Source: Candidatus Saccharimonadota bacterium
GTDB taxonomy: Bacteria > Patescibacteriota > Saccharimonadia > Saccharimonadales > UBA4665
Length of the DNA stretch: 39,354 bases
Reading direction: 5' to 3'
Assembly: GCA_013289705.1 (NCBI GenBank)
Contig: JABCZM010000010.1
Location: forward strand, 1 to 39,354
Position numbers and translations under genes: made by a program. Below the pieces are notes generated by a model. The model made no database searches, had not been told where the DNA came from, and saw only the letters and a list, made by a program, of their open reading frames with translations. This document shows, one piece after another, positions 3,106 to 39,258 of the stretch (the first letter of the stretch is position 1; every line of letters begins with the position of its first letter).

Positions 3106-3342
3106 ATGACTAACCAGCCCCTTTCAGACGAAGAACGCCAAGCCTACATAGACAAGTTGCCAGCTGATCAAGTTAATCCGGACGCAGAGGCAACGTTTGA
3201 TGATGCTATCGAACGCGCCGCGAAGCCGAAGCAATCAAAACCGGAAACACCGGATCCGTCCGATGGTTATACCGATACACAAACTCATTCAGATACAACT
3301 GAAGATATTTCCGGCTCACACAGTGATACGTCCCATCAATAG
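3106..3342 (+). CDS. small hydrophilic protein overlapping the transposase gene
   Basis: This 78-residue hydrophilic protein matches no family I know. An upstream in-frame ATG at 3001 exists, but the start at 3106 is preferred because TATACT lies 6 nt before it. Residues 1-35 (MTNQPLSDEERQAYIDKL onward) look like ordinary coding sequence. The remainder is a low-complexity tail rich in Ser, Thr, Asp, His and Pro. The last 137 nt are antisense to the 3' end of the transposase, whose conserved residues are clearly the constrained frame there. The gene may therefore be the 5' remnant of a longer gene cut by transposon insertion, with an accidental tail, or a genuine small disordered protein. I cannot separate these from sequence alone. 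Confidence 0.4.
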   Translation: MTNQPLSDEERQAYIDKLPADQVNPDAEATFDDAIERAAKPKQSKPETPDPSDGYTDTQTHSDTTEDISGSHSDTSHQ

Positions 3343-4060
3343 AACGTTTTAGTTGTCCCCAAAAGCCTTCAATGGTATTCGTGTGCACAATGCCACGGCC
3401 ATATTCACCAGCACTGTGGTTGACGCTGTCGTGGTAATAACCGACGCGGTGCAATGATCGGTAGACCTGAGCCTGGTCGCTATAGACAGTCGTGCCAGGA
3501 GCGATGTTTGTTTGCAGTCGTGGTAGCAATACCCGAGCGCCGGCACTCCGAACGTGCTCGACTTTGACGTTACCGCCACGCTCAACTATACCAAAGACGA
3601 CGGCTTTATCTTGCACGCTCACATCTTTACCACGCTGTTTGCCGCCAATGTAGGTTTCGTCGGTTTCAACGATGCCGGACAGTGGACTCGTGCCTTGGAG
3701 CATGAGGGCACGAACCTGTTTGGCGATACGCCAGGCAGTCTTATACGTTACACCCAGGTGTCGCTCGATTTCTTTAGCTGACACACCATTCTTTGCTACT
3801 GAGAATAGGTAGATAACATAGAACCAGTCTCGCAGAGATGTAGATGACTTGTGGAAGATGGTGTTAGCCAGTGGGTGTAGTTGGTTGCCACAGTCTTTGC
3901 ACTCGTAGCATTTGCGGTTACGAACGCGGTAGTAGCTGGGTTCAACGATGTCACACTTTGGGCAGGCGGGCATAGAGCCGTAAGCCTGCTCAAACATGTA
4001 GTCTAGGCAACTGTCATCGTCGGGAAAACGTTCGCTGAAGTGTTTGATGGTGAACTTCAT
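3206..4060 (-). CDS. IS1595-type (ISXO2-like) transposase
   Basis: The transposase is 284 residues from the preferred ATG at 4060, which has an AGGAG Shine-Dalgarno about 8-9 nt upstream. An upstream in-frame start at 4120 would add 20 residues without such support. An N-terminal zinc ribbon is visible (CPKC ... CYECKDCG, residues ~34-63), followed by an HTH-like segment (KEIERHLGVTYKTAWRIAKQ) and the DDE/ISXO2 catalytic domain with ETDETYIGGK, VYSDQAQVY and TIEGFWGQLKRSIDGTYH. This order is typical of IS1595-family transposases, and the length is close to normal, so it may be active. I could not find matching terminal inverted repeats or target duplications. The C-terminal end overlaps a plus-strand small gene. 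Confidence 0.9.
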   Translation of the reverse strand: MKFTIKHFSERFPDDDSCLDYMFEQAYGSMPACPKCDIVEPSYYRVRNRKCYECKDCGNQLHPLANTIFHKSSTSLRDWFYVIYLFSVAKNGVSAKEIERHLGVTYKTAWRIAKQVRALMLQGTSPLSGIVETDETYIGGKQRGKDVSVQDKAVVFGIVERGGNVKVEHVRSAGARVLLPRLQTNIAPGTTVYSDQAQVYRSLHRVGYYHDSVNHSAGEYGRGIVHTNTIEGFWGQLKRSIDGTYHCVSRKYLQLYLNEFVYRYNHRTDPVFPVLIASASRRVR

Positions 4061-4101
4061 ACCTTGAGCTCCTAGTAAATGCGATCGATGTCTGGTGTTG
4101 A

Positions 4102-4137
4102 TAAAACGAGAGGCTTGCAAGAAAGTCTCTCGTTTTA
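4102..4137 (-). terminator. 11-bp inverted repeat between DUF3892 and transposase genes
   Basis: A perfect 11-bp inverted repeat (taaaacgagag / ctctcgtttta, arms 4102-4112 and 4127-4137) is present. Read on the minus strand its 3' arm ends in TTTT, so it can serve as terminator of the DUF3892 gene upstream of the transposase. A second 6-bp stem (4136-4141/4148-4153) adjoins it. It could instead be part of the transposon end. Confidence 0.45.
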
Positions 4138-25504: not shown

Positions 25505-25933
25505 ATGGCGAAAGTCGTTAAAGCAAACTTAAAAATGAAGATTAAAGGTGGTCAAGCCAGCGCTGCGCCTCCGGTTGGTAGCACCCTTGGCCAATACGGC
25601 GTCAACATGATGGATTTTATCCAGCCATTCAACGACGCCACCAAAGACCAGATGGGTCAGCTCATTACCGCTCACATTACGGTCTACGATGATCGCACGA
25701 TGAGTTTTCGCGTTGTTGGCCTGCCCACAGATGACCGCATTCGTGCCGAATTAGGCATTCAAAAGGGTTCCGGCAAGCCAAACAGCGAAAAGATCGCCAA
25801 AAAGCTCACCGATGCACAATTAACTAAAATCGCCACCGACAAAGCCCACGACATGAACACCGACGATATCGCAGCTGTCAAAAAGATGGTAGCCGGCACC
25901 GCTCGCAGCATGGGCGTTGAGATCGAGGCCTAA
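25505..25933 (+). CDS. rplK: 50S ribosomal protein L11
   Basis: This 142-residue protein is the normal L11 length. It has the conserved N-terminal KIKGGQASAAPPVGSTLGQY and GVNMMDFIQPFNDATKDQMG, and the C-terminal rRNA-binding part ending MVAGTARSMGVEIEA. L11 forms the GTPase-associated stalk base with 23S rRNA. An AAGGAG Shine-Dalgarno precedes the ATG. It follows nusG in the usual order, but with an extra small gene and its own strong promoter between them. Confidence 0.97.
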   Translation: MAKVVKANLKMKIKGGQASAAPPVGSTLGQYGVNMMDFIQPFNDATKDQMGQLITAHITVYDDRTMSFRVVGLPTDDRIRAELGIQKGSGKPNSEKIAKKLTDAQLTKIATDKAHDMNTDDIAAVKKMVAGTARSMGVEIEA

Positions 25934-25938
25934 ACTCC

Positions 25939-26145
25939 ATGACTATACTGAGCCCCGAAGATCTACGTGTCGCAAACGATATCACCACTTCCGAAGGCCT
26001 ATCAATGCTTTCCGTGGCCGTACAGCAAACAGGAAGTGAATTCCCCCTAAGCTCGATTGCAACAGGCACGATAGGGTACCTCGCAGGTCTGGCCGCAGCA
26101 AATAGCGGTCAAGCATTTTCCCCACCAGAACTAGTACTTGAATAA
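25939..26145 (+). CDS. small orphan protein between rplK and rplA
   Basis: This 68-residue protein starts 5 nt after the rplK stop. The first half is LSPEDLRVANDITTSEGLSM, followed by a mildly hydrophobic Gly/Ala-rich segment (SIATGTIGYLAGLAAANSG) that could be a short membrane or packing helix. No Shine-Dalgarno is visible. Codons such as ATA and CTA differ from the highly expressed neighbours. It fits the gap between rplK and rplA, where most bacteria have only a short spacer. Function unknown; it may be a real lineage-specific gene or a chance ORF. Confidence 0.45.
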   Translation: MTILSPEDLRVANDITTSEGLSMLSVAVQQTGSEFPLSSIATGTIGYLAGLAAANSGQAFSPPELVLE

Positions 26146-26202
26146 ACAATATAATTTGTGGGAGAGTTAAACACTCGTCACTACCACGAAGGAGCAATCA
26201 TT

Positions 26203-27189
26203 ATGGCAACATCAAAGACAGAGCTTCTTGAAGAAGCAAAGGCATTAAACCTCGACGTAACAGCAAAGAACACTGTTGCCGAGATCAATGCGGCAATTGC
26301 AAGCGCCGCAAAGGCCAACGAAGCACCAGTTACCGAAGTCGAAACGACTGAAGCAGCCGAAGCCAAAGTTGCAAAAGCCGGTAAGCGCAGCGAAAAAGGC
26401 ATCAAAGAAGCCGAAGAAAAAGTCGCCAAAGAAGATCGCAAGGCTCACGTTGCCGAAGCAGCAGCCGAAGCCGAGGGCAAACCAAAGCAGCTTGCGAAGC
26501 CAGCACGGAGCAAACTAGAACGTAGTGGTAAGAAGTTCCGCAAGAGCGCCGAACTTATCGACAAAACCAAGTCATACAGCCTTGATGAAGCGGTTGAACT
26601 GGCTCTTAAGACCAGCCCAGTCAAGTTTGATGCGACCGTTGAACTGCATGTCAACCTCAGTGTTGACCCACGTCAGGCCGATCAGAACATCCGCGACAAC
26701 TTACTGTTGCCAGCTGGTAGCGGCAAAAAAGTCCGTGTTGCACTTATGGATGACACAAAAGTAGACGGCGTGGAAATTTCCGGCGTCGAGAATGTCATTA
26801 AAGCCCTAGAAAAAGGCGAGATGAACTTCGACATCCTGATTGCAACTCCTGCACAGATGCCAAAGCTTGGTAAATTTGCCCGCACACTTGGACCACGTGG
26901 TCTGATGCCAAACCCAAAGAGTGGCACCGTTACCAACGACGTTCAAAAAGCTGTGGCAGAAGCCAAAGCCGGTCGTGTCGAATACCGTGTTGACAGCACG
27001 GGTATCATTCACCTTGGTATCGGCAAAGCCAGCTTTACAAGCGCTCAGTTGCTTGAGAACTTGAACGCTGTCCTTGCATCAATCAAGAACAACAAACCTG
27101 GTAGTGTCAAAGGTACGTACTTCAAAGCCGTACACCTTACCACCAGCATGGGTCCTTCCATTACGGTTGACCTCAGCTCGATTGGCTAG
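26203..27189 (+). CDS. rplA: 50S ribosomal protein L1 with N-terminal extension
   Basis: The protein is 328 residues from the ATG at 26203, which has an AAGGAG Shine-Dalgarno. A GTG at 26158 is rejected. The canonical L1 core starts near residue 105 (KKFRKSAELIDKTKSYSLDEA) and includes MPKLGKFARTLGPRGLMPNP, VEYRVDSTGIIHLGIGK and GPSITVDLSS. L1 forms the mobile stalk at the ribosomal E site and often represses its own operon. The first ~35 residues (SKTELLEEAKALNLDV ... TVAEINAAIAS) resemble a SAP/HeH/Rho_N-type helix-extended-loop-helix. They are followed by a ~65-residue Ala/Glu/Lys-rich linker. The normal length is about 230 residues, so the extension is considerable. Confidence 0.94.
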   Translation: MATSKTELLEEAKALNLDVTAKNTVAEINAAIASAAKANEAPVTEVETTEAAEAKVAKAGKRSEKGIKEAEEKVAKEDRKAHVAEAAAEAEGKPKQLAKPARSKLERSGKKFRKSAELIDKTKSYSLDEAVELALKTSPVKFDATVELHVNLSVDPRQADQNIRDNLLLPAGSGKKVRVALMDDTKVDGVEISGVENVIKALEKGEMNFDILIATPAQMPKLGKFARTLGPRGLMPNPKSGTVTNDVQKAVAEAKAGRVEYRVDSTGIIHLGIGKASFTSAQLLENLNAVLASIKNNKPGSVKGTYFKAVHLTTSMGPSITVDLSSIG

Positions 27190-32108: not shown

Positions 32109-32822
32109 GTGGGGGTTTACAGCAACACTCAAATTCGCGCAGCTATCGATGAAGGTCACATTGTTTGTGTGCCGTTCGACGCGAAGCAAGTCTCTCACGC
32201 CAGCCTCGATGTGACGCTTGGTTATCACTACTACCGCATTGAGCGGATGAACGAGCGTACCATCTACAATCCGTTCGACCGCGAAGACGTCGAACGCTAT
32301 TTTGATGGCCCATATAAAGCTATGCCACATGGTGAATGGTGCAAACTCAACGGCATTGCTCCGGTGGCAAACATACCGCTCGATCACCCTGTTATTGCAC
32401 TCAAGCCACGTGAACGGATTTTGGCACACACCCATGAGTTCTTTGGCATTAAGCCACCGGGCGCCTGCGAAGTTCGTAGCCGTTCTAGCTGGGGGCGCAA
32501 TGGTATTGCCGTTTGCTTTGACGCCGGCTGGATTGACCCAGGCTACATCAACCGTTTAACCTTGGAAATTTATAACCTCAACGAGCGTGAAACCGTCTTG
32601 CTGCCTGTTGGCGAGCGCTTTGCGCAGATCATCTTCCACGAAACTGGTCCAGTTGACGGTAATTACGGTGTTGGGCGCGATGCTGGCTTTAGTGGCAAAT
32701 ACCAGCAAGGCACTGATCTGGACACCATTATCAAAACTTGGTCACCAGACATGATGCTACCCAAAGCTTACAAAGACCAGCGCAAGCTACCCGTAAAGAT
32801 CGAAGGATTAGCCTATGAGTAA
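32109..32822 (+). CDS. dcd: dCTP deaminase family protein
   Basis: The protein is 237 residues from the GTG at 32109, chosen for the GAGGAGG Shine-Dalgarno 5-6 nt upstream. A TTG at 32076 is rejected. It has the dCTP deaminase/dUTPase core: CEVRSRSSWGRNGIAV, DAGWIDPGYINRLTLEIYN (with the catalytic Glu in LEIYN), and LLPVGERFAQIIFHETG. It deaminates dCTP to dUTP, and bifunctional forms yield dUMP directly. It is longer than the usual ~190 residues owing to an insert (about 45-75) and a C-terminal tail. It overlaps the Tmk-ThyX gene by 8 nt, so both belong to one thymidylate operon. Confidence 0.88.
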   Translation: MGVYSNTQIRAAIDEGHIVCVPFDAKQVSHASLDVTLGYHYYRIERMNERTIYNPFDREDVERYFDGPYKAMPHGEWCKLNGIAPVANIPLDHPVIALKPRERILAHTHEFFGIKPPGACEVRSRSSWGRNGIAVCFDAGWIDPGYINRLTLEIYNLNERETVLLPVGERFAQIIFHETGPVDGNYGVGRDAGFSGKYQQGTDLDTIIKTWSPDMMLPKAYKDQRKLPVKIEGLAYE

Positions 32823-35136
32823 GGGTAAATACATCGTCCTAGAAGGGCCGGAAGGCGTCGGCAAAACCACGCAGTTAAACGAACTAGCACGCCGTTTGCA
32901 GGCTGCCGGATTACCCGTTCGCATGCTGCGCGAACCCGATAGCCAGAGCGACCTCACCGCTCGTGCCTTGCGACAGCTCACCCAAGACCCACGCTACCCA
33001 ATGAACACCAACACCGAAGTGTTACTCTACAACGCCGCCCGTTCGCAATCGCTCCAAGTGATCAAAAAAAGTGTTGAACAAGGCGTGATTTGTGTTGTTG
33101 ATCGCAACTACCTAACAACGCTTGCCATTCAGTATTACGGCCGTGGTGATGTGCCCGATTACGAAACCATCAACAAAATTATCGAATTTGCCGTCAATGG
33201 TGTCGAGCCAGACCTTTGTGTTGTGCTCGATGCACCGGTTCAGATGCTCAAGGAACGGGTTGGCAACCGTGCTCAAGGCGAACGATTCGATAACCTCGAC
33301 GAGGCATTCTTAGAGCGCGTTCGCGCCGGCTATCTTTGGGAAGCCAAGCAGCGTAATTTACCGGTAGTTTTTGCAACCGACGATGCGGCAACAGTGGCCG
33401 ATAACATCTGGAAACTCGTAGCCGAAGCACTCGCCGTTCGCGAGCCAAGCAAGGTCGGAGCAGCCGTGAGCGAGCCGGTGTCTGTCAAGCAGATCATCGA
33501 AGACAAACAATTACCCCAAAAAGAACAACTAGTTTCTGATGCACCACTTGTTGAAAAGAAGAACGGCTTGTTCCAAGTTACCGACGCTGGACGTAACTAC
33601 TTGCAAGACGCCGTCACTTCCGTAGATGGTAATGTCTACACCTTTACCGACAAACTCAGCCCGATGACCATTGCCGCTGCTATGGCTCGGCTAAGCCGCC
33701 GCGGTGACGACATGCGCATTACGCTCTTGGATGAATTTGGCGGTAAGGTTGGCAAGGACGAAAAGCTGTTGCAGCGCGTCATTACAGCCTACGGCGACGA
33801 CTCAGTCCAACAGCTAGCCGGCATCCACATGGTGGTCGAAAATGCTTCGAACTTGCTGACCAAAAAACTTGAATGGGGACGTTTGGCAGCTTATCTTGAA
33901 CAATCTACGCGCTACATTTACTTCGACCAGAAGGATAAAGCAGGCAACTACAAATACTTCGTACCTCGAAATCTCGACGCCAAAACCAAGCAAATATACA
34001 TCGAAAGTCTCGACAAGATTTTTGATATATATTCAGACCTCGTCCACAAGTTAACAACGTACGTCCAGGCCAACTCAGATGTGCCCGAAGCCGAGCGCGA
34101 CATTGCCTGGAAAGGTGCCACACGCGCCCAAGCCTGTGACGCCTGCCGCTTCCTATTGCCGGTAGCCACAAAATCTACCGTTGGCATTTTTGCCTCTGGC
34201 CAAGCGCTAGAGAGCTTAATTATGCATTTGCAAAGTGATGATCTACTCGAAGCACAAGATACCGGCAACAATATGCTTGAACAAGGCCGTAAAATCGTTC
34301 CAGCATTCCTAGAACGCGCCGATAAACCCGACCGTGGCGGCGCCATGATTGCTTACCGCTCCAACACTGCTCACGCCGTTGCGGCGCTTGCAAAAGAGTA
34401 CTTATCCGATACCTACGCCGATGACGGCACCGAAGCCGTAACCTTAGTTGAATCTTGGCCTAAGAGCGAGCTAAGCATCGTTGCCGATATGCTATACGAA
34501 CACAGCAACTTACCGCTCAAAGACATCCAGAAAGAAGTCGATAGCTGGTCATACGAGCAAAAAGTTAAAACGTTCACTGCCTACGTGGGCGAACGCCTCA
34601 ACCGCCGCCATCGACCTGGCAGAGCACTCGAAAAAATCCACTATAGCTGGGATTTGGTATGTGATTACGGCATTTTCCGCGACTTACAGCGTCACCGCAT
34701 GGTCGACGATCTGGAGTGGCAACTACTGACACCGCGCTATGGCTACGACACACCTACGCTCATCGACGAAGCCGGTTTAACAGATGAATTTGAGCAATGT
34801 TTTAGCATCAGCCTGGAACTCTATAGCACCATGCAAGCTGCCGGTTACGCACTTGAAGCCCAATACGCCACACTGCTTGGCCACAAAATGCGGTGGAAAG
34901 TTACTTACAATGCCCGCGAAGCCTTCCATCTGCACGAACTGCGCACCAGTCCGCAGGGTCACCCTGGCTATCGTAAACTAGTACAAGAAATGCACGAAAA
35001 ACTAGCAGAAGTCCATCCGCTATTGGCCGACGCCATGAAGTTTGTTAATCAAGGCGAAGACGAAGCCCTCACCAGGCTTGCCGCCGAGCGTTACACGCAG
35101 TACAAATTAGAACAGCTTGACAAGCAAGCCCAGTAG
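32815..35136 (+). CDS. fused dTMP kinase / double ThyX thymidylate synthase
   Basis: A single open frame of 773 residues. Residues 1-205 are a dTMP kinase: P-loop GPEGVGKT at 11-18, the MLREPDSQSD substrate loop, VVDRNYLTTLAIQYYG, and a lid region. Residues 206-245 are a linker. From ~246 follow two ThyX-like domains. The first contains GRLAAYLEQSTRY (E362 to Y367), RFLLPVATKSTVGIFASGQA and a helical end. The second contains LQRHRMVDDLEWQLLTPRYG (R626-H627-R628) and YNAREAFHLHELRTSPQG. ThyX methylates dUMP to dTMP with FAD, NADPH and methylene-tetrahydrofolate, and Tmk phosphorylates dTMP to dTDP. Neither ThyX domain has the whole RHRxxSxxxxSxR signature. The gene overlaps dcd by 8 nt. Confidence 0.9.
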   Translation: MSKGKYIVLEGPEGVGKTTQLNELARRLQAAGLPVRMLREPDSQSDLTARALRQLTQDPRYPMNTNTEVLLYNAARSQSLQVIKKSVEQGVICVVDRNYLTTLAIQYYGRGDVPDYETINKIIEFAVNGVEPDLCVVLDAPVQMLKERVGNRAQGERFDNLDEAFLERVRAGYLWEAKQRNLPVVFATDDAATVADNIWKLVAEALAVREPSKVGAAVSEPVSVKQIIEDKQLPQKEQLVSDAPLVEKKNGLFQVTDAGRNYLQDAVTSVDGNVYTFTDKLSPMTIAAAMARLSRRGDDMRITLLDEFGGKVGKDEKLLQRVITAYGDDSVQQLAGIHMVVENASNLLTKKLEWGRLAAYLEQSTRYIYFDQKDKAGNYKYFVPRNLDAKTKQIYIESLDKIFDIYSDLVHKLTTYVQANSDVPEAERDIAWKGATRAQACDACRFLLPVATKSTVGIFASGQALESLIMHLQSDDLLEAQDTGNNMLEQGRKIVPAFLERADKPDRGGAMIAYRSNTAHAVAALAKEYLSDTYADDGTEAVTLVESWPKSELSIVADMLYEHSNLPLKDIQKEVDSWSYEQKVKTFTAYVGERLNRRHRPGRALEKIHYSWDLVCDYGIFRDLQRHRMVDDLEWQLLTPRYGYDTPTLIDEAGLTDEFEQCFSISLELYSTMQAAGYALEAQYATLLGHKMRWKVTYNAREAFHLHELRTSPQGHPGYRKLVQEMHEKLAEVHPLLADAMKFVNQGEDEALTRLAAERYTQYKLEQLDKQAQ

Positions 35137-35146
35137 GCGTTAGATA
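35117..35146 (+). promoter_or_regulatory. ilv operon promoter within the ThyX gene end
   Basis: A perfect TTGACA (35117-35122) lies inside the last codons of the preceding gene, followed after 18 bp by TAGATA (35141-35146). The -10 box is weak. It ends 8 nt before the leader-peptide ATG, so the leader peptide would be translated from a leaderless mRNA. Confidence 0.55.
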
Positions 35147-35154
35147 GAACTGAT

Positions 35155-35244
35155 ATGAGTTTCAACCTATTGAGCATTGTGGTGATTAGCATTCTCGGCC
35201 TATCGGGGCTGTGCTTCACTATGGTTGAAGCCACCGAGCAGTAA
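35155..35244 (+). CDS. ilv operon leader peptide
   Basis: This 29-codon ORF ends in TAA. Eleven codons are for branched-chain amino acids: five Leu, three Ile and three Val, with NLLSIVVISILGLSGL as the dense run. This is the hallmark of ilv attenuator leader peptides. The codon run ends just before the sequence that can form an antiterminator with the terminator loop downstream. Ribosome stalling at low charged Leu/Ile/Val-tRNA would free that sequence. No Shine-Dalgarno is seen; a leaderless start is likely. The peptide itself is not expected to have a function. Confidence 0.75.
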   Translation: MSFNLLSIVVISILGLSGLCFTMVEATEQ

Positions 35245-35263
35245 AACGCTCACCGCACAGCCC
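35206..35263 (+). promoter_or_regulatory. ilv leader pause hairpin and antiterminator arm
   Basis: A perfect 9-bp stem (gggctgtgc 35206-35214 / gcacagccc 35255-35263) encloses the 11-nt segment tggttgaagcc (35222-35232). That segment is the exact reverse complement of ggcttcaacca (35278-35288) in the terminator. The two pairings exclude the terminator hairpin when formed. Confidence 0.7.
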
Positions 35264-35273
35264 AGGCACCACA

Positions 35274-35301
35274 AACAGGCTTCAACCAGAGCCTGTTTTT
35301 T
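35274..35301 (+). terminator. ilvB attenuator terminator
   Basis: An 8-bp stem (aacaggct 35274-35281 / agcctgtt 35290-35297) is followed by a T run (T6 from 35296 to 35301). It lies between the leader peptide and ilvB, and its 5' arm and loop are complementary to the leader segment 35222-35232. Confidence 0.85.
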
Positions 35302-35352
35302 AATGTAAAAGGAAGATACCGTGTCAAACAGAGTAAGCAACAACGGAGCATT

Positions 35353-37071
35353 ATGAAAAAACAAGACATAAACGGCGCGGAAGCACTCATATATTGCCTC
35401 GAAAAACTCGGCGTTGAATATATATTTGGCTATTCTGGCGGAGCGGCAATCCCGATCTTTGACGCCATTATTACCACTGGCACGAAAATCAAACTTATTT
35501 TAACCAGGCACGAGCAAGGCGCAGCGCATATCGCCGATGGCTATGCTCGAGCTAGCGGCAAACCAGGCGTCATACTGGTAACATCTGGGCCAGGCGCAGG
35601 CAACATTGTGACAGGTCTGATGACGGCGCATATGGACAGCGTGCCGATGATCGCCATTACTGGGCAGCAGATTCGGCCAATGCTTGGACTCGATGCCTTC
35701 CAGGAAGCTGACGTATTCAACATCACCATGCCCGTTACAAAGCACAACTACCTGATTCTCGAAACAAATCAGCTGCCAGAAATTGTCCACGAAGCATTTA
35801 GTATTGCCACGACTGGCCGACCAGGTCCGGTGCTCATCGACATTCCAAAAGATGTAAGTTCAGGACCGTTCACGGGTTCACTCGAAATCTCTGCAAGCCA
35901 GGTGACCGCACCAAAACTGGCAACCATTAGCGCCAAAACTATCAAGCGTACCACTGATCTGTTACAAATAGCCCAAAAACCGGTTATCTTGGCTGGTCAC
36001 GGCGTACTGCTTGCTGATGCTCAGGATCAATTACGTGCAGTCAGCAAACAGTTTGACGTGCCCGTTGTCACAACCTTGCTTGGCAAGGGCGCCGTGGACG
36101 AAACAACACCACTGGCATACGGAATGCTTGGCATGCACGGCACGGCCTACGCTAACAAGGCAATTCTAGAAGCAGATTTGTTGCTTAATATTGGCTCACG
36201 CTTTGATGACCGTATCATTGGTGATGGCAAGAGCTTTGGCAAAGACGCAACCATTGTTCATGTTGATATCGACGCCGCCGAAATGGGCAAGATGATTCGC
36301 CCCGACATTGCGATTGTCGCCGATGCCAAACAGTTCTTGACTCAGTTGCAGGCAACTAAACAAGCTGCCAATCATCAAAACTGGCGAGTGCGCCTTGATG
36401 GCTACCGCAAACAGTTTCCACTCGGCTACAGCGACGAGCACGGCCTGACGCAGCAACACATTCTTGACAGCCTAAACCACATAACCAACGGCGAAGCCAT
36501 CGTCACCACCGACGTTGGCCAGCACCAAATGTGGGCCGCTCAGTTCCTCAAAACCAAACACGCCAATCAGTGGGTTACCTCTGGTGGTGCTGGCACGATG
36601 GGCTTTGGCCTGCCAAGTGCTATTGGCGCCCAGTTTGCCTGCCCAGACAAGCCGGTCGTTGCTATTGTAGGCGACGGCGGTTTCCAAATGACACTTTACG
36701 AACTAGCTACGGCGGCACTACACAAACTGCCCATTAAGATCTTCGTCCTAAACAACCATTACCTGGGCATGGTACGCCAGTGGCAAGAGTTGTTTTACGA
36801 TAATCGCTTGAGTGGCGTAGACTTGGAAGGCAATCCGGATTTTGTAAAATTAGCCGAAAGTTACGGCATTAAAGCCTTCAACATCGAAAAGGCAAGCAAA
36901 GTCGACAGCATCATCCAAAAAGTCATGGCCTACAACGGTCCGGTACTGGTGAACTGCGAAGTTGCCAAAACCGACAACGTCTACCCAATGATTCCAGCCG
37001 GCCGAGCCTACACCGACATGCTCACCGAAGCGCCAACTGAAAAACTCGAAAAACCCGTGGGGAGTACCTAA
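35353..37071 (+). CDS. ilvB: acetolactate synthase large subunit
   Basis: This 572-residue ThDP enzyme is typical of anabolic AHAS. E54 in TRHEQGAAHIADGYARA is the expected ThDP-activating Glu, the FAD-linked middle domain follows, and the ThDP motif GDGGFQMTLYELATAA starts at G440 and runs to VLNNHYLGMVRQWQ. It joins two pyruvates to acetolactate, or pyruvate and 2-oxobutanoate to acetohydroxybutanoate, the first common step of Val, Leu and Ile synthesis. A GGAG Shine-Dalgarno precedes the ATG. It heads ilvB-ilvN-ridA-ilvA, with 4 nt to ilvN. Expression is likely set by the attenuator upstream. Confidence 0.96.
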   Translation: MKKQDINGAEALIYCLEKLGVEYIFGYSGGAAIPIFDAIITTGTKIKLILTRHEQGAAHIADGYARASGKPGVILVTSGPGAGNIVTGLMTAHMDSVPMIAITGQQIRPMLGLDAFQEADVFNITMPVTKHNYLILETNQLPEIVHEAFSIATTGRPGPVLIDIPKDVSSGPFTGSLEISASQVTAPKLATISAKTIKRTTDLLQIAQKPVILAGHGVLLADAQDQLRAVSKQFDVPVVTTLLGKGAVDETTPLAYGMLGMHGTAYANKAILEADLLLNIGSRFDDRIIGDGKSFGKDATIVHVDIDAAEMGKMIRPDIAIVADAKQFLTQLQATKQAANHQNWRVRLDGYRKQFPLGYSDEHGLTQQHILDSLNHITNGEAIVTTDVGQHQMWAAQFLKTKHANQWVTSGGAGTMGFGLPSAIGAQFACPDKPVVAIVGDGGFQMTLYELATAALHKLPIKIFVLNNHYLGMVRQWQELFYDNRLSGVDLEGNPDFVKLAESYGIKAFNIEKASKVDSIIQKVMAYNGPVLVNCEVAKTDNVYPMIPAGRAYTDMLTEAPTEKLEKPVGST

Positions 37072-37075
37072 ACAG

Positions 37076-37336
37076 ATGAAAAAAGACACCGATCACACCT
37101 ATATATTGACGCTCACCGTTCGGAATCGCCCTGGCGTGCTTGTTCGTTGTGCCCAAGTTTTTGGCCGCCGAGGTCACAACATCGAAGCCCTGGCCGTAAC
37201 CGCCGACATCAACAACCGTAGCTTTTCCGCTATGACCATCACCGCGTACGGCGCGCTAGAAACCATGAATCAAATCGTCGCTCAATTAACAAAACTGGTT
37301 GATGTTACTAATGTCACCGAGGAAGAAACACTATGA
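37076..37336 (+). CDS. ilvN: acetolactate synthase small (regulatory) subunit
   Basis: This 86-residue protein with a single ACT domain begins YILTLTVRNRPGVLVRCAQV and continues FGRRGHNIEALAV. It lacks the C-terminal domain of the ~160-residue IlvH type and so resembles the short IlvN/IlvM form of enterobacteria. It activates the large subunit and mediates valine feedback through the ACT domain. Its last bases overlap the ridA start (ATGA), which suggests translational coupling. Confidence 0.93.
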   Translation: MKKDTDHTYILTLTVRNRPGVLVRCAQVFGRRGHNIEALAVTADINNRSFSAMTITAYGALETMNQIVAQLTKLVDVTNVTEEETL

Positions 37337-37719
37337 CTGATCTAAACCTAACATTTGGCCCGTACACACCCGTTCGCAAAGCCGGCAATTTCTATTTTAT
37401 ATCCGGGCAAGTTGGCGTTGACCCGCTTACCAAGACAGCCAGTGCGGACGTTGCTCAGCAGACCAAGCAAGTCTTATATAACCTAGAATCCCTCTTGGCC
37501 GAGCAAAATCTAACCATGAACGACGTCATTAAAACAGCCATCTTTGTCACAAACATCGACGATTTTGCGTCGGTAAATGCCGTCTACGAAACTTTTTTCG
37601 ACAATCCACGACCAGCTCGCAGCACCGTGCAAGTCGCTGCACTACCCAAAGTTGCAGGCGAAACACCATTAGTTGTCGAAATTGAAGCCGTCGCATACAA
37701 AGAAGCGGAGGCTGCCTAA
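37333..37719 (+). CDS. ridA: RidA family enamine/imine deaminase
   Basis: This 128-residue protein is the normal RidA length. It has the conserved YFISGQVGVDP, TKQVLYNLESLLAEQNLTMN, FVTNIDDFASVN, FFDNPRPARSTVQVAALP (with the substrate-binding Arg) and VEIEAVAYK at the end. RidA hydrolyses 2-aminoacrylate and 2-aminocrotonate made by PLP dehydratases such as IlvA, which is encoded next. It therefore gives 2-oxobutanoate faster and protects PLP enzymes. Its placement between ilvN and ilvA is meaningful for the pathway. Confidence 0.94.
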   Translation: MTDLNLTFGPYTPVRKAGNFYFISGQVGVDPLTKTASADVAQQTKQVLYNLESLLAEQNLTMNDVIKTAIFVTNIDDFASVNAVYETFFDNPRPARSTVQVAALPKVAGETPLVVEIEAVAYKEAEAA

Positions 37720-37722
37720 GCC

Positions 37723-39258
37723 ATGGAAGAAGCCCTCCGCCAAACACTGCTCGCCAACGTCTATGATGTTGCCGAAGAAACACCACTACAATTAGCGCCA
37801 AAATTAACCAGTCAGCTTGGGCACGACGTTTATTTAAAGCGCGAAGATTTGCAATCCGTTCATTCGTTCAAGCTCCGTGGTGCCTACAACAAAATGTCGC
37901 AATTGACTCCCGATGAGCGCAAAAAAGGTGTGATTGCAGCCAGCGCCGGCAACCACGCCCAAGGTGTTGCATTGAGTGCCAAAAAGCTCGGCATCTCCGC
38001 ACTGATTGTCATGCCACGCACCACGCCCAGTATCAAAGTTGAAGCCGTACAGTCGTATGGCGCAGAGGTCGTGCTGTTTGGCGACAGCTATTCCGATGCC
38101 TACGAACACTCGCAAGCAATCATCAAATCATCGGGCCGGGTGTTTATTCATCCTTTCGACGATCCGCTAGTGATTGCTGGCCAGGGAACCGTTGGGCGCG
38201 AAATCCTGGAACAAAATCCAAACGTCACCCACATTTTTGTACCAGTTGGTGGCGGTGGACTACTAGCCGGAATCGCCCAGTACGTCAAGGCTATCCGCCC
38301 AGACGTCATAATCATCGGTGTTGAGCCCGAAGATAGTGCCGCGATGCATGCATCACTCAAGGCAAATAAACGCGTCATTTTGCCGCATGTCGGTATCTTT
38401 GCCGACGGTGTGGCTGTCAAGCAAGTTGGAGAACACACCTTCGCTACCGCCAAGAAATATGTCGACAAAGTTATTACCGTGAATGTCGACCAAGTTTGCG
38501 CGGCCATTAAAAGTATTTTTGAGGAAACTCGCAGCATTGTCGAGCCAGCTGGCGCGTTGGCAACGGCAGGCATTCAGGCGCTCGCACACGAACTTCCAAG
38601 CAAATCCGTATCTGTGGCTATCTGTTCTGGGGCTAATATGACCTTTGAACGCTTGCAGTTCATCGCCGAGCGAACCTTACTTGGTAGCGGCAAAGAAGCC
38701 CTATTTGCCGTTCGCTTGCTCGAACAACCAGGTGCACTGCGACATTTCTGTAAAGAAGTAGTAAACGGCTACGCCATCACCGAATTCAGCTACCGTTTAA
38801 CCAGCCGCAACGAAGCATATATATGTGTTGGCATCGGCGTGCCAAGCGAAAAAGACAAACAAGCCTTCGTGGGCCATCTAGACAAATACAACTACACCTA
38901 TCACGATCTATCCTTGGACGAACTGGCGAAGGAGCACATTCGCCATATGATAGGTGGCACCAGTAGTGAAGCCAAACACGAACACCTCTATGACATTCAG
39001 TTCCCAGAACGCCCTGGCGCCCTCAACGACTTCCTGCAAGCCATTGGCAACAACTGGAACATCAGCCTATTCCACTACCGTGGCCAAGGTGCTGACACCG
39101 GCCATGTGCTCATTGGCTTTGAAGCCTCCGACGTCAAAACTTTAGAAGCAACCCTCGCCGAAACAACTTATGACTTTAGCCGGGTCGAATCAACGGCCGC
39201 CGATCTGTTTTTGGCAAGCAAGCAAGGCGTAATCCCTCAAAATAAAAGGTTACCGTAG
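37723..39258 (+). CDS. ilvA: threonine dehydratase, biosynthetic
   Basis: This 511-residue protein has the length of the biosynthetic IlvA with two C-terminal regulatory ACT-like domains. The PLP-dependent catalytic part has the Schiff-base lysine K50 in SFKLRGAYNKM, SAGNHAQGVA, and the phosphate-binding loop VPVGGGGLLAGIA. The regulatory half (about 330-500) includes ALFAVRLLEQPGALRHF and YDIQFPERPGALNDFLQ, one per ACT-like domain. These suggest isoleucine feedback. It makes 2-oxobutanoate and ammonia from threonine. It is the last gene of the operon in this window; a partial minus-strand gene converges on it and overlaps by 9 nt. Confidence 0.95.
   Translation: MEEALRQTLLANVYDVAEETPLQLAPKLTSQLGHDVYLKREDLQSVHSFKLRGAYNKMSQLTPDERKKGVIAASAGNHAQGVALSAKKLGISALIVMPRTTPSIKVEAVQSYGAEVVLFGDSYSDAYEHSQAIIKSSGRVFIHPFDDPLVIAGQGTVGREILEQNPNVTHIFVPVGGGGLLAGIAQYVKAIRPDVIIIGVEPEDSAAMHASLKANKRVILPHVGIFADGVAVKQVGEHTFATAKKYVDKVITVNVDQVCAAIKSIFEETRSIVEPAGALATAGIQALAHELPSKSVSVAICSGANMTFERLQFIAERTLLGSGKEALFAVRLLEQPGALRHFCKEVVNGYAITEFSYRLTSRNEAYICVGIGVPSEKDKQAFVGHLDKYNYTYHDLSLDELAKEHIRHMIGGTSSEAKHEHLYDIQFPERPGALNDFLQAIGNNWNISLFHYRGQGADTGHVLIGFEASDVKTLEATLAETTYDFSRVESTAADLFLASKQGVIPQNKRLP

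What the first reader, a model, noticed from the sequence alone, without database searches (positions are those of the whole stretch)
35117..35301. Complete ribosome-mediated attenuator before ilvBN-ridA-ilvA
The 216-nt gap before ilvB contains a TTGACA promoter box, a 29-codon leader peptide with 11 Leu/Ile/Val codons, a 9-bp pause hairpin, an intrinsic terminator with a T6 tract, and an 11-nt segment (35222-35232) exactly complementary to the terminator 5' arm and loop (35278-35288). A ribosome that reaches the leader stop would cover 35222-35232 and let the terminator form. Stalling at the branched-chain codons would leave it free to form the antiterminator. This is the classical ilv/leu logic of Proteobacteria and Actinobacteria, in a reduced-genome CPR-like bacterium.
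Basis: partly seen in the sequence, partly recalled or inferred. Interest (0 to 1): 0.75.

Follow-up and report, generated by a model that had tools for sequence, protein, structure and literature searches.

The report
Leu/Ile-sensing attenuator family in Saccharibacteria
The stretch before the isoleucine/valine synthesis genes looks like a genuine genetic switch in which a ribosome reading a tiny decoy gene decides whether the real genes are switched on, and it belongs to a large, apparently undescribed family of such switches found only in the ultrasmall Saccharibacteria, where the same switch is fitted with different amino-acid 'sensor' codons ahead of different genes.

Summary
The interpretation (ribosome-mediated transcription attenuator) is strongly supported and extends well beyond this window. 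A second copy precedes alaX-leuS in the same genome. A covariance model finds 82 copies in 76 of 393 genomes of the same order (Saccharimonadales) and none outside it. The RNA consists of a leaderless leader ORF carrying sensor codons, then strands 1-5. Helix 1:3 and helix 2:4 (antiterminator) cross, and 4:5 is the terminator. Both crossing helices are kept by compensatory changes (18 of 20 pairs, 0 of 500 shuffles). Sensor codons track the genes: Leu before leuA-like genes and leuS, Ile(/Val) before ilvB/ilvA. In one genome two copies have 95% identical switches but IVIII versus LALALL sensors. The 9-bp helix is better read as an anti-antiterminator than as a pause hairpin. No Rfam family matches and no paper was found. 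The mechanism is a known kind; the RNA family, the crossing-helix switch and its reuse ahead of unknown small genes next to rplJL are new. No RNA or expression data exist.

The parts
35117..35145 (+). putative promoter: -35 TTGACA (35117-35122), 17-nt spacer, weak -10 TTAGAT (35140-35145)
   Evidence: the layout recurs in relatives; the strict scan misses it because the -10 is weak
35155..35244 (+). leader ORF, 29 codons, start 9 nt after the -10 box with no Shine-Dalgarno (leaderless or nearly so)
   Evidence: conserved frame in 74 of 82 loci; SD-like motif in 4 of 79 leaders
35167..35202 (+). sensor codons CTA TTG AGC ATT GTG GTG ATT AGC ATT CTC GGC CTA (Leu/Ile/Val)
   Evidence: the identity of this run follows the downstream gene
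35206..35214 (+). strand 1 (GGGCUGUGC), pairs with strand 3
35222..35232 (+). strand 2 (UGGUUGAAGCC), antiterminator 5' strand, pairs with strand 4
35255..35263 (+). strand 3 (GCACAGCCC), pairs with strand 1: anti-antiterminator
35278..35288 (+). strand 4 (GGCUUCAACCA), shared by antiterminator and terminator (5' arm and loop)
35273..35301 (+). intrinsic terminator hairpin (35273-35298) overlapping the T6 tract (35296-35301)
   Evidence: T-runs of 4 or more in 76 of 82 loci
35321..35356 (+). SD-led mini-ORF (GTG 35321, VSNRVSNNGAL*) whose stop overlaps the ilvB start (ATGA): possible translational coupling
   Evidence: read
35353..37071 (+). ilvB, acetolactate synthase large subunit (controlled gene)
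   Evidence: TIGR00118, 704 bits, over cut-off
37076..37336 (+). ilvN, acetolactate synthase small subunit
   Evidence: TIGR00119, over cut-off
37333..37719 (+). ridA, Rid-family hydrolase
   Evidence: TIGR00004, over cut-off
37723..39258 (+). ilvA, threonine ammonia-lyase
   Evidence: TIGR01124, over cut-off

Best explanation
It is a ribosome-mediated transcription attenuator, one member of a Saccharimonadales-specific RNA family. Transcription starts a few bases before the leader AUG and the leader is read without a Shine-Dalgarno site. If Ile-, Val- or Leu-tRNA is short, the ribosome stalls on the sensor codons (35167-35202) and its downstream edge covers strand 1 (35206-35214). Helix 1:3 then cannot form, strand 2 (35222-35232) captures strand 4 (35278-35288) as it is made, the terminator cannot form, and ilvBN-ridA-ilvA is transcribed. 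If charged tRNA is plentiful, the ribosome runs on towards the stop (35242-35244), covering strand 2 wholly or partly. Strand 1 is released, pairs with strand 3 (35255-35263) and locks strand 2 inside a loop; strand 4 folds with its 3' arm into the terminator and transcription stops after T6. Shown here: sequence anatomy, conservation, covariation of both helices, match of sensor codons to downstream genes, frame conservation, absence of SD. Inferred: the ribosome stalling step, the order of events, the start of transcription, and all regulation.
For: All elements verified in sequence. 82 homologous elements in 76 of 393 genomes of the order. Helices 1:3 and 2:4: 94.4% of cells paired, 18 of 20 pairs with changes on both sides, 68 double-change cells against 13.4 in shuffles (0 of 500), sliding controls collapse. 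Sensor specificity: the 10-codon window has Leu 4.2 / Ile 0.25 before leuA-like genes and leuS (n=16) versus Leu 2.4 / Ile 2.3 before ilvB/ilvA/ridA (n=18), Mann-Whitney p=5e-5 for Ile. Two copies in one genome (G033) with 95% identical switch but IVIII (ilvB) versus LALALL (leuA-like) sensors; own genome: I/V-rich before ilvB, LLLL before leuS. ATG-started ORF open to strand 1 in 74/2/5 loci by frame. Folding up to strand 4: P(2:4) median 0.91 (window 0.97) with strand 1 masked; with strand 1 free 1:3 wins (median 0.78 v 0.07; window 0.99 v 0.01).
Against: No expression or RNA data. Equilibrium folding of the whole stalled-state RNA does not always prefer the antiterminator (32 of 82), so a kinetic argument is needed. 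With no ribosome at all the model predicts 2:4 rather than termination in most loci (median 0.75), unlike the trp paradigm. In the window the stop codon leaves strand 2 only partly masked. ilvD is not found in this genome or in 58 of 60 relatives, so the end product of the operon is uncertain. Four loci with ilvA further downstream carry Leu-only or Leu-rich sensors.
Confidence: 0.9

Rival explanations
1. Pseudoknot variant: helices 1:3 and 2:4 form together as an H-type pseudoknot that is itself the antiterminating structure, and the ribosome (or a protein) controls that whole fold rather than switching between the two helices.
For: The two helices cross and both covary; the 7-nt spacer between strands 1 and 2 is nearly constant and rich in conserved UUCA; 7-, 22- and 14-nt loops do not forbid it sterically.
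Against: The sensor codons sit just upstream of strand 1, where a stalled ribosome would cover strand 1 and forbid 1:3; the conserved UUCA is explained by a possible local hairpin with strand 2. Secondary-structure tools used here cannot score the pseudoknot.
Confidence: 0.12
2. The conserved peptide (G-L-C-F-x-x-V-E-A) is the functional product, e.g. an arrest peptide sensed in the ribosome tunnel, and the RNA conservation follows from the codons.
For: GLCF and VEA are strongly conserved at the protein level.
Against: Third codon positions in strands 1 and 2 are as fixed as first and second ones, and in strand 1 change almost only with pairing kept. 10 of 13 amino-acid-changing substitutions inside strand 1 keep the base pair, e.g. 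GGGCAGTGC/GCACTGTCC in G034. Diverged loci have other peptides but keep both helices (G047, G095).
Confidence: 0.03
3. A ligand- or tRNA-binding switch (riboswitch or T-box) or a protein-bound attenuator, with the leader ORF incidental.
For: Such elements precede ilv/leu/leuS genes in other bacteria; the actinobacterial LEU element is suspected to bind a protein (PMC1262725).
Against: No Rfam family, T-box included, matches at E<=10 beyond chance-level hits; the codon content of the ORF tracks the downstream gene while the rest of the RNA stays constant.
Confidence: 0.03
4. Not functional: an old ORF fragment plus an ordinary terminator of the upstream gene.
For: The terminator could also end the upstream gene's transcript; reduced genomes keep short gaps.
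Against: 82 covarying copies ahead of unrelated genes and in different genomic contexts.
Confidence: 0.01

Closest known systems
Enterobacterial ilvGMEDA / ilvBN / leuABCD and trp attenuators (from general knowledge)
   Same: Leader peptide rich in the regulated amino acids, mutually exclusive antiterminator and intrinsic terminator, a third helix that blocks the antiterminator.
   Different: There the strands pair with neighbours (1:2, 2:3, 3:4), so no-translation gives termination; here the protecting helix is 1:3 and crosses the antiterminator 2:4. The leader here has no Shine-Dalgarno site. No sequence relation known to me.
Actinobacterial ilvB attenuators: Corynebacterium ilvB-II motif (PMC10272879), C. 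glutamicum three-hairpin model (PMC11857589), M. tuberculosis ilvB1 (PMC13236596)
   Same: BCAA-codon upstream ORF, terminator / antiterminator / anti-antiterminator logic, ahead of ilvB.
   Different: Those are ilvB-specific in their lineages; the Saccharimonadales RNA is one conserved switch used with different sensor codons before ilvB, ilvA, leuA-like genes, leuS and unknown small ORFs. No Rfam model matches here.
LEU element of Actinobacteria (PMC1262725)
   Same: Leucine-codon ORF ahead of leuA plus a conserved pseudoknot-type (crossing) pairing.
   Different: The LEU element's base stem pairs the Leu codons with the leuA Shine-Dalgarno box, no terminator is described for it, and it is proposed to bind a protein. 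Here there is an intrinsic terminator and the sensor codons are not part of the main helices.
Leaderless attenuator peptides: Sinorhizobium trpL (PMC7298713), mycobacterial polycysteine sORFs (cited in PMC13236596)
   Same: Leader ORF whose AUG is at or next to the transcript's 5' end.
   Different: Different amino acids, RNA structure and lineage; the start of transcription is only predicted here.
ilvB-OMG motif and Leptospira ilvB motif (PMC10272879)
   Same: RNA motifs before ilvB with BCAA-rich uORFs, attenuation proposed.
   Different: Described from other lineages with other models; no match of this window to any Rfam family at E<=10 beyond chance. Whether ilvB-OMG itself is in that library was not checked.

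Membership tests
Ribosome-mediated transcription attenuator (trp/his/ilv/leu type) | short translated leader ORF with a run of codons for the regulated amino acid | tested here: met
   window; 82 loci; class-specific codons; one conserved frame. Translation itself not shown.
Ribosome-mediated transcription attenuator (trp/his/ilv/leu type) | mutually exclusive terminator and antiterminator sharing one strand | tested here: met
   strand 4 is in both 2:4 and 4:5
Ribosome-mediated transcription attenuator (trp/his/ilv/leu type) | ribosome position selects the fold (stalling favours antitermination) | tested here: inconclusive
   computed only: masking strand 1 gives 2:4 (median P 0.91), freeing it gives 1:3; no experiment
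Ribosome-mediated transcription attenuator (trp/his/ilv/leu type) | short terminated leader transcript that varies with charged tRNA | not testable with these tools
LEU element (Actinobacteria, PMC1262725) | base stem pairing Leu codons with the SD of leuA, no terminator described | tested here: not met
   terminator present; main helices do not involve the sensor codons
T-box | Rfam T-box model match | tested here: not met
   no match at E<=10
Any described Rfam 15 family | match to a covariance model | tested here: not met
   only chance-level matches below gathering scores; only L10_leader at other places
Saccharimonadales attenuator family defined here (model R1) | strands 1-4 with covarying 1:3 and 2:4, leader ORF, terminator | tested here: met
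   window is a 105-bit match, but it was one of the 25 seed sequences; second own-genome copy 104 bits (also seed); 57 further matches not in the seed

The most novel reading that the evidence does not exclude
A single attenuator module has spread and been re-coded within one order of ultrasmall bacteria. In many lineages it no longer controls branched-chain synthesis but switches on fast-evolving, Leu-poor small proteins of unknown function next to the ribosomal stalk operon rplJL, turning a biosynthesis switch into an amino-acid-starvation sensor for another response.
Probability: 0.3. Interest if true: 0.75.

Novelty: new variant of a known kind. Interest (0 to 1): 0.58.

Why it matters
Regulation in the Candidate Phyla Radiation is almost unexplored; a 2024 review says that how these cells live on hosts and regulate their cell cycle is virtually unknown (PMC11665869). 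This gives a widespread RNA switch with a precise, testable mechanism. Because the switch part stays nearly constant while the sensor codons change with the gene (95% identical switches with Ile or Leu sensors in one genome), it is a natural codon-swap experiment for attenuation. It also predicts which genes these cells treat as Leu- or Ile-responsive, including leuS and unknown small proteins, and the crossing-helix layout is a different solution to the anti-antiterminator problem.

Tried and rejected
Rfam search of the region at E<=10: nothing beyond chance. Equilibrium folding of the full stalled-state RNA: ambiguous (32 of 82 choose 2:4), replaced by folding up to strand 4. Considered that rplJ-rplL is the regulated operon where it lies downstream: 13 of the 17 loci searched carry a canonical L10_leader, so rplJL has its own control and may simply be a neighbour; left open. 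Considered that the 1b:2 local hairpin (GCUUCA/UGAAGC) is the functional pause hairpin: 96.7% paired but only 5 double-change cells, so not established. Leader 5' segments complementary to strand 2 or strand 1 (AAGCA motif in 44 of 82 leaders versus 8.1 expected) are enriched but no role is assigned. Phylum-wide search with R1: matches only in genomes of the same order. Exact-pattern scan of 84,980 species: 29 stretches, every informatively named one Saccharibacteria/Saccharimonadales; the eight records titled only 'bacterium' have contig lengths equal to contigs of genomes placed in the order. Literature searches for this element in Saccharibacteria/CPR: nothing; one search listed no paper naming both Saccharibacteria and ilvB.
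Full report
WHAT IS THERE. Between the upstream ORF (ends 35136) and ilvB (35353) lie a 29-codon ORF (35155-35244), strand 1 GGGCUGUGC (35206-35214), strand 2 UGGUUGAAGCC (35222-35232), strand 3 GCACAGCCC (35255-35263), strand 4 GGCUUCAACCA (35278-35288) and a terminator hairpin (35273-35298) running into T6 (35296-35301). Strand 1 pairs with 3 (9 bp), strand 2 with 4 (11 bp), and strand 4 is also the 5' arm and loop of the terminator. The order 1-2-3-4 makes helices 1:3 and 2:4 cross. An inverted repeat of 11 bp or more arises in 0.6% of shuffles. The operon is ilvB-ilvN-ridA-ilvA by NCBIfam.

A SECOND COPY IN THE SAME GENOME. A search of the window's own genome (1.24 Mb, 13 contigs) found one more copy, at C1:197355-197513. 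It has 33 identical bases across strands 1 and 2 and the leader MSFNVRSSFGLLLLSLQGLCFTMVEATE. It lies upstream of a 100-aa ORF, an AlaX-type editing protein and leuS. The sensor there is LLLLSL; before ilvB it is LLSIVVISIL.

A FAMILY. DNA search of 60 relatives gave matches in 24 genomes. A covariance model R1 built on 25 of these sequences found 82 matches in 76 of 393 genomes of the same order; 57 of the 82 were not in the seed. A phylum-wide sample of 380 genomes gave matches only in genomes of the same order. A core pattern scanned over 84,980 species hit 29 stretches; all with informative names are Saccharibacteria or Saccharimonadales, and the eight titled only 'bacterium' have contig lengths equal to contigs of genomes already placed in the order. 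Rfam has no matching family.

RNA-LEVEL SELECTION. On the 82-row alignment, helices 1:3 and 2:4 together have 94.4% of cells paired; 18 of 20 pairs show changes on both sides, with 68 double-change cells against 13.4 in shuffles and none of 500 shuffles reaching any measure. Sliding the partners by 1-3 columns drops pairing to 23-42%. Caveat: alignment A3 was fitted to a model holding 8 of the 9 pairs of 1:3, so those counts lean towards it; 2:4 was not in the model. Helix 1:3 also shows double changes on the sequence-only alignment. Examples: GGGCAGTGC with GCACTGTCC (G034); GTTACTGAGGCC with GGCCTCAGTAA (G066, G124); strongly diverged but still paired strands in G047, whose leader precedes ilvC- and ilvD-type genes. 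Third codon positions in strands 1 and 2 are as fixed as the others, so the constraint is on RNA rather than on the peptide.

THE LEADER ORF. An ATG-started ORF runs open to strand 1 in 74 loci in the observed frame, against 2 and 5 in the other frames. The start codon usually lies 7-9 nt after the -10 box (48 of 69 loci with a good promoter score). SD-like motifs occur before 4 of 79 leaders but before 72 of 82 first genes after the terminator. The leader is therefore probably read from a leaderless or nearly leaderless transcript. In the window the -10 (TTAGAT) is weak, and the strict scan reports no promoter.

SENSOR MATCHES GENE. In the 10-codon window ending two codons before strand 1, leuA-like and leuS loci (n=16) have 4.2 Leu and 0.25 Ile; ilvB/ilvA/ridA loci (n=18) have 2.4 Leu and 2.3 Ile (Mann-Whitney p=5e-5 for Ile, 3e-4 for Leu; loci are related, so these are not independent samples). 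The most telling case is G033, where two adjacent copies are each other's nearest neighbours (95% identical from strand 1 through strand 4) but carry IVIIILG before ilvB and LALALLG before the leuA-like gene. The leuA-like proteins match 2-isopropylmalate synthase models but below the equivalog cut-offs.

HOW IT WOULD WORK. Folding the RNA up to strand 4 (before the terminator's 3' arm exists) gives P(2:4)=0.97 in the window (median 0.91 over 82) when strand 1 is masked. When the RNA from strand 1 onward is free, P(1:3)=0.99 and P(2:4)=0.01 in the window (medians 0.78 and 0.07). So a ribosome stalled on the sensor codons, whose leading edge reaches strand 1, permits the antiterminator; a ribosome that has moved on releases strand 1, and 1:3 blocks the antiterminator. 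In 21 loci the stop codon follows strand 2 directly, so a stopped ribosome would mask strand 2 fully; in nearly all others, including this window, it lies 6 or more nt further on and masks strand 2 only partly. The 9-bp helix is therefore better called an anti-antiterminator than a pause hairpin. Without any ribosome the calculation favours 2:4 (median 0.75), which differs from trp and remains untested. Equilibrium folding of the complete stalled RNA is ambiguous (32 of 82 choose 2:4).

WHAT IT CONTROLS. Downstream genes fall into leuA-like/leuS (16 loci), ilvB/ilvA/ridA (18), rplJL-adjacent (30) and other (18). The rplJ and rplL labels rest on my reading of the sequences and on Rfam L10_leader hits in 13 of 17 loci searched; rplJL thus has its own control element. 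In most rplJL-adjacent loci the first gene after the terminator is an SD-led ORF of about 40-130 aa with little similarity between genomes; five downstream proteins of unknown function tested had no Pfam match. These ORFs are Leu-poor (5.3% v 9.2% in larger downstream ORFs). In several genomes leader, leuA-like or ridA-ilvA genes and rplJL stand in one run, so loss of the synthesis genes could have left the switch ahead of the small ORF.

A METABOLIC PUZZLE. ilvD (PF00920) is not found in this genome or in 58 of 60 relatives, while all 14 control genomes ring. The only KARI_N match is weak and partial. The contig ends 96 bp after ilvA, so genes could lie on a missing piece, but the same lack in relatives suggests a truncated route. 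What the cells gain from acetolactate synthase without the later steps is open.

COMPARISON. In logic this is the ilv/leu attenuator of textbooks and of Actinobacteria (PMC10272879, PMC11857589, PMC13236596). It is not the LEU element (PMC1262725), for which no terminator is described and whose Leu codons pair with the SD. Leaderless attenuator peptides are known (Sinorhizobium trpL, PMC7298713). I found no description of this RNA in Saccharibacteria; the library holds only open-licence papers.

VERDICT. Observation confirmed, interpretation supported and refined; a new RNA family and structural variant of a known kind of regulation, with a real but unproven extension to unknown small proteins.

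Noticed in passing
G000 C1:197355-197513 (L003:7356-7514): Second attenuator copy with an LLLLSL sensor ahead of a 100-aa unknown ORF, an AlaX-type editing protein and leuS.
   Followed up: yes
first ORF after the terminator in 58 loci, e.g. L119, L121, L118, L100, L069: SD-led, fast-evolving ORFs of 40-130 aa, Leu-poor (5.3% v 9.2%); those tested have no Pfam match. Several share a V-x-I-P-Y-A-G-T-E motif and a C-terminal ANLPA/ANMPG/ANMIP ending, others end in DPLSQGI/DPIAQGI.
   Followed up: partly
L065, L067, L076, L095, L099, L102, L119 and others: The attenuator is often directly upstream of rplJ-rplL, which in most cases has its own L10_leader; in some genomes leuA-like or ridA-ilvA genes sit between. 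Suggests loss of synthesis genes with retention of the switch.
   Followed up: partly
G276 (L101), G265 (L125), G270 (L117): Variant sensors MIYVLG, NMYILG, YMIVLG ahead of a small ORF and an unannotated protein of about 200 aa (the one tested has no Pfam match), next to tmk-thyX-like genes in opposite orientation; the amino acid sensed may differ (Met/Tyr/Ile).
   Followed up: no
G000 and relatives: ilvD (PF00920) absent in this genome and in 58 of 60 relatives although ilvBN-ridA-ilvA is present here; ilvC evidence weak.
   Followed up: partly
leader ORFs, 24-36 nt upstream of strand 1: Motif AAGCA in 44 of 82 leaders (8.1 expected), complementary to UGCUU of strand 1; and leader 5' ends complementary to strand 2 more often than shuffles (7 or more nt in 16% v 2%). 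Possible extra alternative pairings.
   Followed up: partly
window 32815-35136: 773-aa ORF that looks like thymidylate kinase joined to a ThyX-like domain in one frame, directly upstream of the attenuator; its 3' end contains the -35 box. By reading only.
   Followed up: no
window 25505-27189: Ribosomal L11 and L1 genes (rplK-rplA, by reading) are not followed by rplJL in the window; in relatives rplJL often sits beside the attenuator.
   Followed up: no
window 3206-4120: Probable transposase of the IS1595/ISXO2 type (by reading, not searched).
   Followed up: no
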